A stretch of 36,169 bases of DNA from Actinomycetota bacterium. GTDB lineage: Bacteria; Actinomycetota; Thermoleophilia; Solirubrobacterales; 70-9. A program made the position numbers and the translations under genes. This document shows, piece after piece, positions 27,983 to 28,664 of this stretch; the stretch's first letter is position 1; each line of letters begins with the position of its first letter. Under the pieces are notes generated by a model. That model was not told where the DNA came from. It was given only the letters and a program-made list of their open reading frames with translations, and made no database searches. The stretch is taken from contig JAFDWG010000327.1 of NCBI GenBank assembly GCA_018268605.1, positions 1-36,169 of the forward strand, given 5' to 3'.

Positions 27983-28057
27983 CTAGAGCACGCGGCGGGC
28001 GAGCGCGATCACGAGCAGCACGAGGATGATGACGATGAGGATCCAGACGATGGTCAC
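27983..28057 (-). CDS. 24-residue single-helix membrane peptide
   Basis: GTG at 28057 is preceded at 8 nt by a perfect AAGGAGG (28072-28066). The product TIVWILIVIIVLVLLVIALA-type helix (four polar residues only) ends in RRVL: one membrane helix with a basic end, expected N-outside/C-inside. Such tiny hydrophobic peptides are common but usually not annotated. The combination of an ideal Shine-Dalgarno, an exact helix length and an immediate stop supports a real gene. It is 104 bp upstream of the 69-aa gene on the same strand. Function is unknown. Confidence 0.6.
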   Translation of the reverse strand: MTIVWILIVIILVLLVIALARRVL

Positions 28058-28093
28058 GGGCAAGGCCTCCTTCTGACGGGGGTCTTCACGCGC

Positions 28094-28147
28094 CGCGGGT
28101 CGCGGCACGACGAGGTTTCTCTCCTCGGACGCCAAGTCGTACCCGCG
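28094..28147. repeat. Bulged inverted repeat S1
   Basis: CGCGGGT (28094-28100), then ACGAC (28107-28111) and GAGG (28112-28115) pair with CCTC (28123-28126) and the contiguous GTCGTACCCGCG (28136-28147). The stem has a 6-nt bulge on the left side and a 9-nt internal bulge on the right. Confidence 0.5.
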
Positions 28148-28151
28148 CTAT

Positions 28152-28227
28152 CGGGGCACCAAACAGTGGTCCTCGTCCAAACGGGGGTTGCGCCGGCCGC
28201 TCCGGCAGTCCTATGGGCGGTGCCCCG
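28152..28227. repeat. Inverted repeat S2, enclosing a small hairpin
   Basis: CGGGGCACC (28152-28160) pairs perfectly with GGTGCCCCG (28219-28227). Inside, GCCGG (28192-28196) and CCGGC (28202-28206) form a second stem, giving a closed, branched element. Confidence 0.5.
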
Positions 28228-28274
28228 GGCGTCTCATGGAGGTCCTGGCAGGCTGTGACCTCCACGAGACGCCC
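28227..28274. repeat. Inverted repeat S3, 18-bp arms
   Basis: Arms 28227-28244 and 28257-28274 (GGGCGTCTC-A-TGGAGGTC and its complement), loop 12 nt, with one mismatch: A/C on the plus strand, which would be G-U in minus-strand RNA. It shares its first base with the end of S2. Confidence 0.7.
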
Positions 28275-28283
28275 AGGACGGTG

Positions 28284-28327
28284 GGAGTGCGGTGTTCCTC
28301 CGGGGGTTCGTGCGTGAGCGGCCACAC
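28284..28327 (+). repeat. 44-nt dispersed intergenic repeat, copy B
   Basis: 39 of 44 positions match copy A (5287-5330, minus strand), with the 20-base core CTCCGGGGGTTCGTGCGTGA unchanged. Copy A is preceded directly by GGTGCCC. In copy B the same GGTGCCC lies 55 nt further upstream, with hairpin S3 between, as if S3 had been inserted. Confidence 0.7.
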
Positions 28328-28351
28328 ACCGCGGCCGATCCCGAAGGACGC

Positions 28352-28390
28352 GCCGCACATTCGTGCCCTATGGGGGCACCAATGTGCGGC
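28352..28390. repeat. Inverted repeat S4, 17-bp arms
   Basis: Arms 28352-28368 and 28374-28390 (GCCGCACATT-C-GTGCCC and complement), loop TATGG, one central mismatch. The mismatch is C/C on the plus strand and G/G on the minus strand, so it does not point to a strand. Confidence 0.7.
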
Positions 28391-28404
28391 ACGGAGACGG
28401 GCGG

Positions 28405-28439
28405 GGCAGATCCACCCCCTGTAGGGGGGTCAACCTGCC
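28405..28439. repeat. Inverted repeat S5 with internal loop
   Basis: GGCAG (28405-28409) pairs with CTGCC (28435-28439). ACCCCC (28414-28419) pairs with GGGGGT (28425-28430). A symmetric 4-nt internal loop separates the two helices. Confidence 0.5.
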
Positions 28440-28549
28440 GCGCACCTAGGTCGGTGTTGTGCAACACGCACGGAAGCGTGGACTTCGTGGCATCTCCCGC
28501 GCGTCACCCGCGACGGCGTCGCAGTTTCTCCTCACCTCTCATACCCCCG

Positions 28550-28595
28550 CCGTCCCGGCCACGGCCACAGCCTGCCCGGGCCGTGGCCGGGACGG
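28550..28595. repeat. Inverted repeat S6, perfect 16-bp arms
   Basis: CCGTCCCGGCCACGGC (28550-28565), a 14-nt loop, then GCCGTGGCCGGGACGG (28580-28595). It is 70 bp from the stop codon of the minus-strand IPT/PASTA gene and could be that gene's terminator, but no U-tract follows. Confidence 0.7.
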
Positions 28596-28664
28596 CCGTG
28601 CTCGCCGCAGGCCCTTGCGTCCCTTTCCTCGAGCCCCGACCCGCCGAGGCGAGTGATGACCGGA

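What the first reader, a model, noticed from the sequence alone, without database searches (positions are those of the whole stretch)
28086..28600. Intergenic region with six consecutive long stems: candidate new structured RNA
About 600 bp between a micropeptide gene and an IPT/PASTA gene have no credible protein gene but hold six inverted repeats in a row with arms of 9-18 bp; three of them abut (28094-28147, 28152-28227, 28227-28274) and two have nested or bulged helices, as in a folded RNA rather than a row of terminators. A mismatch in S3 becomes G-U on the minus strand, weakly favouring that strand. I know no family with this order of stems, but I could not search.
Basis: partly seen in the sequence, partly recalled or inferred. 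Interest (0 to 1): 0.8.

Follow-up and report, generated by a model that had tools for sequence, protein, structure and literature searches.

The report
Dispersed hairpin-bounded repeat in Solirubrobacterales
The six hairpins are not one new RNA gene. Most of them belong to one copy of a repeat, about 450 bases long here, that sits between genes at tens to well over a hundred places in six related soil-bacterium genomes, is capped at both ends by hairpins with the same 14-base loop, and has no obvious enzyme to spread it.

Summary
The stems are real, but they are not one RNA. Window 28187-28636 is one copy of a dispersed repeat. The genome holds 125 exact copies of its loop motif, five related Solirubrobacterales species hold 66-328, and every other genome searched in the order (226) has 5 or fewer. 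The six carriers form one clade. Each element has two hairpins with 18-24 bp stems and a nearly invariant 14-nt loop, CCKGGCAGGCTGTG, facing each other 200-850 bp apart. Between them lie further, partly exchangeable palindromes and no protein gene. The stems covary strongly while the loop stays fixed. Elements sit between convergent genes (43 of 64; background 33 of 193), about 60 bp from both stop codons, with no orientation preference. The window site is empty in G007 and G011, so G000 most likely gained it. IS200/RAYT (Y1), reverse-transcriptase and IS110 genes do not track the repeat. The first two stems of the finding lie in, or reach into, the conserved promoter/leader of a neighbouring micropeptide gene and are not part of the element. 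Best reading: a new REP/BIME-like, non-autonomous mobile repeat, much larger than known REPs and without the usual transposase, probably acting as a bidirectional 3'-end barrier. Spreading mechanism and function are inferred.

The parts
28187..28636 (.). Whole dispersed repeat element (borders good to about 10 bp)
   Evidence: Homology with other copies starts and ends here, flanks unrelated; empty orthologous sites in G007 and G011
28224..28277 (+). Left end hairpin; invariant 14-nt loop CCTGGCAGGCTGTG at 28244-28257
28352..28390 (.). Internal palindrome 1 (17-bp arms, 5-nt loop), a variable/exchangeable module
28404..28440 (.). Internal palindrome 2 (GGCAG...CCCCC-TGTAG-GGGGG...CTGCC), a variable module
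28549..28596 (-). Right end hairpin; same loop in inverted orientation (CCGGGCAGGCTGTG on the minus strand, 28566-28579)
28597..28636 (.). Conserved right terminal segment (...GCCCTTGCGTCCCTTTCCTCG)
28058..28180 (-).
27983..28057 (-). Not part of the element: micropeptide VTIVWILIVIILVLLVIALARRVL

Best explanation
It is one copy of a new family of REP/BIME-like, non-autonomous dispersed repeats in a Solirubrobacterales clade. Each element is a block of palindromes closed by two head-to-head hairpins with a fixed 14-nt loop. Shown: high copy number at unrelated sites, presence/absence at orthologous sites, clade restriction, stem covariation with a fixed loop, no protein gene inside, strong preference for gene 3' ends. 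Inferred: (a) it spread as DNA through recognition of the two end hairpins (conserved loop, covarying stem, so recognised as a folded single strand) by a factor that is not a detectable Y1/RAYT, reverse transcriptase or IS110 enzyme; (b) copies survive where they harm least, in the gap between convergent genes, and there the back-to-back hairpins act on both incoming transcripts as a symmetric 3'-end barrier or stabiliser.
For: More than 40 related places in the window's own genome, several nearly full length at 91-93% identity with unrelated flanks. Loop motif counts 125, 197, 328, 311, 104 and 66 in six genomes; 0-1 in the six other genomes of the genus; 5 or fewer in all other genomes of the order, like the reversed-pattern control. 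Carriers are one 100/100 clade on a single-protein tree. The hairpins scanned pair head-to-head, 89 pairs 200-850 bp apart, without coding potential in the 73 distinct elements scored. 145 distinct hairpins share the loop while stems covary. 43 of 64 elements are convergent against 33 of 193 background gaps (p about 1e-18), 3 divergent, and 7 against 8 for orientation in tandem gaps. Window site empty in G007 and in the more distant G011; in G006 also without element but rearranged; 10 of 11 orthologous flanks lack the element in G007.
Against: No transposase is identified and no target-site duplication could be resolved, since species are only 75-90% alike. The most similar copies in a genome are about 93% identical, so recent movement is not shown (near-identical copies would break MAG contigs, and many contigs do end in the element). 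Covariation could also arise by palindrome-correcting template switching. No transcription data.
Confidence: 0.6

Rival explanations
1. RNA-level module: a bidirectional transcription terminator or mRNA 3'-end stabiliser, with the conserved loop bound by an RNA-binding protein. Spread is incidental and selection acts on the transcript.
For: Strong convergent-gene preference and spacing of about 60 bp from both stop codons. Each convergent transcript entering the element meets a hairpin with the same loop first. Fold z-scores and covariation.
Against: The scan found no T-tract after the end hairpins. On the loop strand A.C mismatches exceed G.U at both ends (17 against 6 and 19 against 7), the reverse of what a transcript reading into each hairpin would give. 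Orientation in tandem gaps is random. It does not by itself explain copying to new sites.
Confidence: 0.2
2. A classical MITE: terminal inverted repeats cut by a DDE transposase acting in trans; the hairpins are only long inverted ends.
For: Inward-facing ends, no ORF, outer GGGAAGGGAYGGG-like motifs at both ends in G007 and G006, high copy number.
Against: The two ends share loop and fold rather than stem sequence, each end is itself a hairpin, no target duplication was seen, and no autonomous copy was found. DDE families were not screened.
Confidence: 0.12
3. Palindromes kept perfect by replication template switching or gene conversion rather than by selection; the repeat is inert.
For: Almost no wobble intermediates; several unrelated hairpin families in the same genomes show constant bases with variable but paired apices.
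Against: The unpaired 14-nt loop is nearly invariant across 145 hairpins in six species, which template switching does not explain.
Confidence: 0.05
4. A single new structured RNA gene at 28086-28600, as first proposed.
For: Fold better than shuffles; no Rfam match.
Against: Many dispersed copies; first two stems lie in or reach into another feature; site empty in related species.
Confidence: 0.02

Closest known systems
REP/BIME repeats (GTAG- and CGTC-tagged REPs; PMC3733652)
   Same: High-copy extragenic palindromes, head-to-head dimers, mostly between convergent or same-strand ORFs close to stop codons; CGTC REPs also lack a dedicated transposase
   Different: Stems 18-24 bp and loop 14 nt with a fixed loop sequence (CGTC REPs: stems 8-9 bp, loops 4-5 nt; GTAG stems 5-13 bp); partners 200-850 bp apart with other palindromes between them; no GTAG/CGTC tag demonstrated; no Y1/RAYT gene in any of the 12 genomes of the genus
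REPINs (PMC3116915)
   Same: Two inverted hairpin units forming one non-autonomous unit
   Different: Far larger, different units, no RAYT found
MITEs / ERIC / BOX / RUP-type small dispersed repeats
   Same: Non-coding, dispersed, palindromic, intergenic
   Different: Ends are self-contained hairpins with a shared loop; no target duplication resolved; no parent IS found
IS200/IS605-derived non-autonomous elements
   Same: Subterminal hairpins with likely single-strand recognition
   Different: No Y1 transposase in carriers; loops inverted relative to each other; very long stems

Membership tests
GTAG/CGTC REP super-families | Short palindrome (stem 5-13 bp GTAG, 8-9 bp CGTC) with terminal GTAG or CGTC tag | tested here: not met
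   Stems 18-24 bp, 14-nt loop, no tag at the unpaired foot of the stem; definition from PMC3733652
GTAG REP/REPIN with RAYT | Y1 (RAYT/IS200) transposase in the genome | tested here: not met
   PF01797: 0 of 12 genomes of the genus, controls ring; MAGs are incomplete
REP-like repeats in the broad sense | High-copy extragenic palindromes located mainly downstream of genes | tested here: met
REP-like repeats in the broad sense | Head-to-head dimers | tested here: met
   89 + / - pairs found
MITE | Terminal inverted repeats with target-site duplication and a parent transposase | tested here: inconclusive
   Ends are inverted; no duplication resolved; DDE families not screened
Intrinsic terminator | GC hairpin followed by a T-tract | tested here: not met
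   Only one small hit (28510-28522), not at the end hairpins
Known Rfam RNA | Covariance model match at gathering score | tested here: not met
Kissing-loop RNA (left loop pairs with right loop) | Coupled changes in the two loops of one element | tested here: not met
   33 identical pairs of 73, 34.2 expected by shuffling
Retroelement / group II intron or retron | Reverse transcriptase accompanying the repeat | tested here: not met
   PF00078 only in G010 (non-carrier) and G008

The most novel reading that the evidence does not exclude
The element is moved by a so far unknown hairpin-recognising DNA recombinase, not a Y1/HUH transposase, that reads the fixed 14-nt loop on a folded single strand. 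This would be a second route by which REP-like repeats colonise bacterial genomes, and other hairpin families in the same genomes (constant stem base, variable apex) may be its further substrates.
Probability: 0.22. Interest if true: 0.8.

Novelty: new variant of a known kind. Interest (0 to 1): 0.52.

Why it matters
It is an abundant repeat family (about 30 to 165 elements per genome, from 66 to 328 loop motifs) that no family library or paper searched here describes. It has a rare combination: end hairpins with a fixed loop and covarying stems, other exchangeable palindromes inside, placement between convergent genes, and none of the three enzyme families tested that could move it. It bears on the open question of how REP-like repeats without a RAYT arise and spread. 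It also explains why these MAGs fragment, since many contigs end inside an element.

Tried and rejected
Single structured RNA: rejected by copy number. Known RNA family: no Rfam match. RAYT/IS200 mobilisation: no Y1 gene in 12 genomes. Reverse transcriptase and IS110: present in scattered carriers and non-carriers. Autonomous copy with an ORF: none among 89 pairs, and the longest interiors are non-coding. Kissing loops: no coupling. Canonical terminator: no T-tract. Matches of the loop in other phyla (Spirochaetota, Halomonas, Caldilineales, Pseudomonadales): three lie inside long open frames, one is a lone hairpin; treated as chance. A first regex scan timed out. Literature: no paper on such repeats in Solirubrobacterales in the library searched.

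Full report
WHAT WAS CHECKED. The stretch 28086-28600 was read and folded. The long stems are real: 28224-28277, 28349-28393, about 28404-28440 and 28549-28596. The 450-nt stretch 28187-28636 folds better than all 100 dinucleotide shuffles on both strands (RNA z -4.5 and -7.3, DNA z -6.1). Rfam gives nothing, and no protein gene is credible.

TWO FEATURES, NOT ONE. The left part of the finding (to about 28180) is the promoter and 5' leader of a 24-aa membrane micropeptide gene (27983-28057, minus strand). It aligns at 84% with G007 and 90% with G011, where no element follows, and carries a SigB/SigF-like GTTT-16-GGGTAC promoter (promoter class from general knowledge). S2 pairs its GGGGCACC with GGTGCCCC of the neighbouring element, so it crosses the junction. 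The remaining stems belong to one element, about 28187-28636.

A DISPERSED REPEAT. Searching the window's own genome with this stretch gave more than 40 related places; several are nearly full length at 91-93% identity, others share only the two ends with a different middle. Flanks are unrelated. The 14-nt loop pattern CCKGGCNGGCTGTG occurs 125 times in this genome and 197, 328, 311, 104 and 66 times in G011, G006, G008, G007 and G003, against 0-2 for the reversed pattern on each strand. The other six genomes of the genus have 0-1, and across 232 genomes of the order no other genome exceeds 5. On a tree of one solute-binding protein the six carriers form one clade with 100/100 support.

ANATOMY. 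Each element is bounded by two hairpins whose loops are the same sequence in inverted orientation: 89 head-to-head pairs were found, all 200-850 bp apart. Over 145 distinct hairpins the loop CC(T/G)GGC(A)GGCTGTG is nearly invariant while the stem varies and stays paired. On 36 distinct hairpins 92.7% of cells pair, 18 of 21 pairs have changes on both sides, and the covariation score is 0.69 against 0.23 (sd 0.016) in shuffles and 0.18 or less in all slid controls. The interior holds other palindromes that differ between copies. In 18 elements of G006 a consensus fold contains the end hairpins, two long-range helices and a central hairpin that exists in two unrelated but fully paired versions. 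No interior has coding potential.

PLACEMENT. With a home-made gene caller, 43 of 64 elements lie between convergent genes, against 33 of 193 gaps on a 354-kb contig of G007 (p about 1e-18). Three are divergent, and in tandem gaps the orientation is random, 7 against 8. The end hairpins start typically about 60 bp from the stop codon on either side.

GAIN AND LOSS. The window's site is empty in G007 and in the more distant carrier G011; in G006 it also lacks the element but is rearranged. So the copy was most simply gained in the window's lineage. Of 11 elements whose flank has an ortholog on the G007 contig, 10 are absent there. The one shared site carries the element apparently in opposite orientation. 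No target duplication could be read at 75-90% identity. The most similar copies within a genome are about 93% identical; younger copies would be lost at MAG contig ends, many of which lie in elements.

MECHANISM. A fixed loop on a freely changing but always paired stem is what recognition of a folded single strand would leave. In IS200/IS605 and REP systems that is done by Y1 enzymes, but none exists in the 12 genomes of the genus, and reverse transcriptase and IS110 genes do not track the repeat. Loop-loop pairing between the ends is not supported. On the loop strand A.C mismatches exceed G.U at both ends (17 against 6, 19 against 7). Since the two loop strands lie on opposite DNA strands, no single transcript is favoured. 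I therefore prefer a DNA-level mobile repeat kept at gene 3' ends, where it probably also acts as a symmetric barrier to both incoming transcripts. Both the mobilising factor and the 3'-end role are inferred.

COMPARISON. The nearest kind is REP/BIME repeats, which are likewise head-to-head and between convergent ORFs, and whose CGTC branch also lacks a dedicated transposase (PMC3733652). The element fails their size, loop and tag definitions, so it is not filed as a member; it is a new, much larger, composite variant. Other long-hairpin families share these genomes: family A (CTGTTCCTTATG...CATAAGGAACAG) and family B (GATGGGCCGAAAAC...GTTTTCGGCCCATC), single or as modules inside elements, with constant bases and variable paired apices.

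VERDICT. A real structural observation, misread as one RNA. It is a new variant of a known kind of dispersed repeat, of moderate interest, with a mobilising mechanism that is still open.

Noticed in passing
window 27983-28164 (minus strand): 24-aa membrane micropeptide VTIVWILIVIILVLLVIALARRVL with a 5' leader and a SigB/SigF-like promoter (GTTT-16-GGGTAC) kept in G007 (84%) and G011 (90%); the leader is absent at the orthologous place in G006.
   Followed up: partly
G007:C82 (L106-L123), and genus-wide: Hairpin family A, CTGTTCCTTATG...CATAAGGAACAG with a variable but paired apex: 81 in G006, 72 in G008, 35 in G007, 10 in G005 (which lacks the main element), 5 in G000, 3 in G003.
   Followed up: partly
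G007:C82 108865-108915, 138460-138513, 306185-306233 and genus-wide: Hairpin family B, GATGGGCCGAAAAC...GTTTTCGGCCCATC with a variable paired apex: 61 in G006, 38 in G007, 18 in G003, 9 in G000, 8 in G008, 5 in G011, none in non-carriers.
   Followed up: partly
L202 (JAFEFH010000094.1): A contig filed under a Proteobacteria MAG carries an element about 87% identical to a G000 copy; probably a mis-binned contig from a related Solirubrobacterales organism.
   Followed up: partly
L089 (G008) against G007:C82 95930-96829: The same gene (about 91% identical) has the element at its end in both species, but apparently in opposite orientation, as if inserted twice or inverted.
   Followed up: partly
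L192 1-300, L194 90-380: Right of the element, G006 copies carry tandem units of about 36 bp (CATCCCTTTCCCTCCGGGCGACAGCTTCAGGGGCCG).
   Followed up: no
G006 elements, alignment A2 columns 70-210: A tandem unit of about 30 bp (CACAGGGACGGGAGGGGGTCGTGAAAAAGACGG) varies in copy number inside the left part of the element.
   Followed up: no
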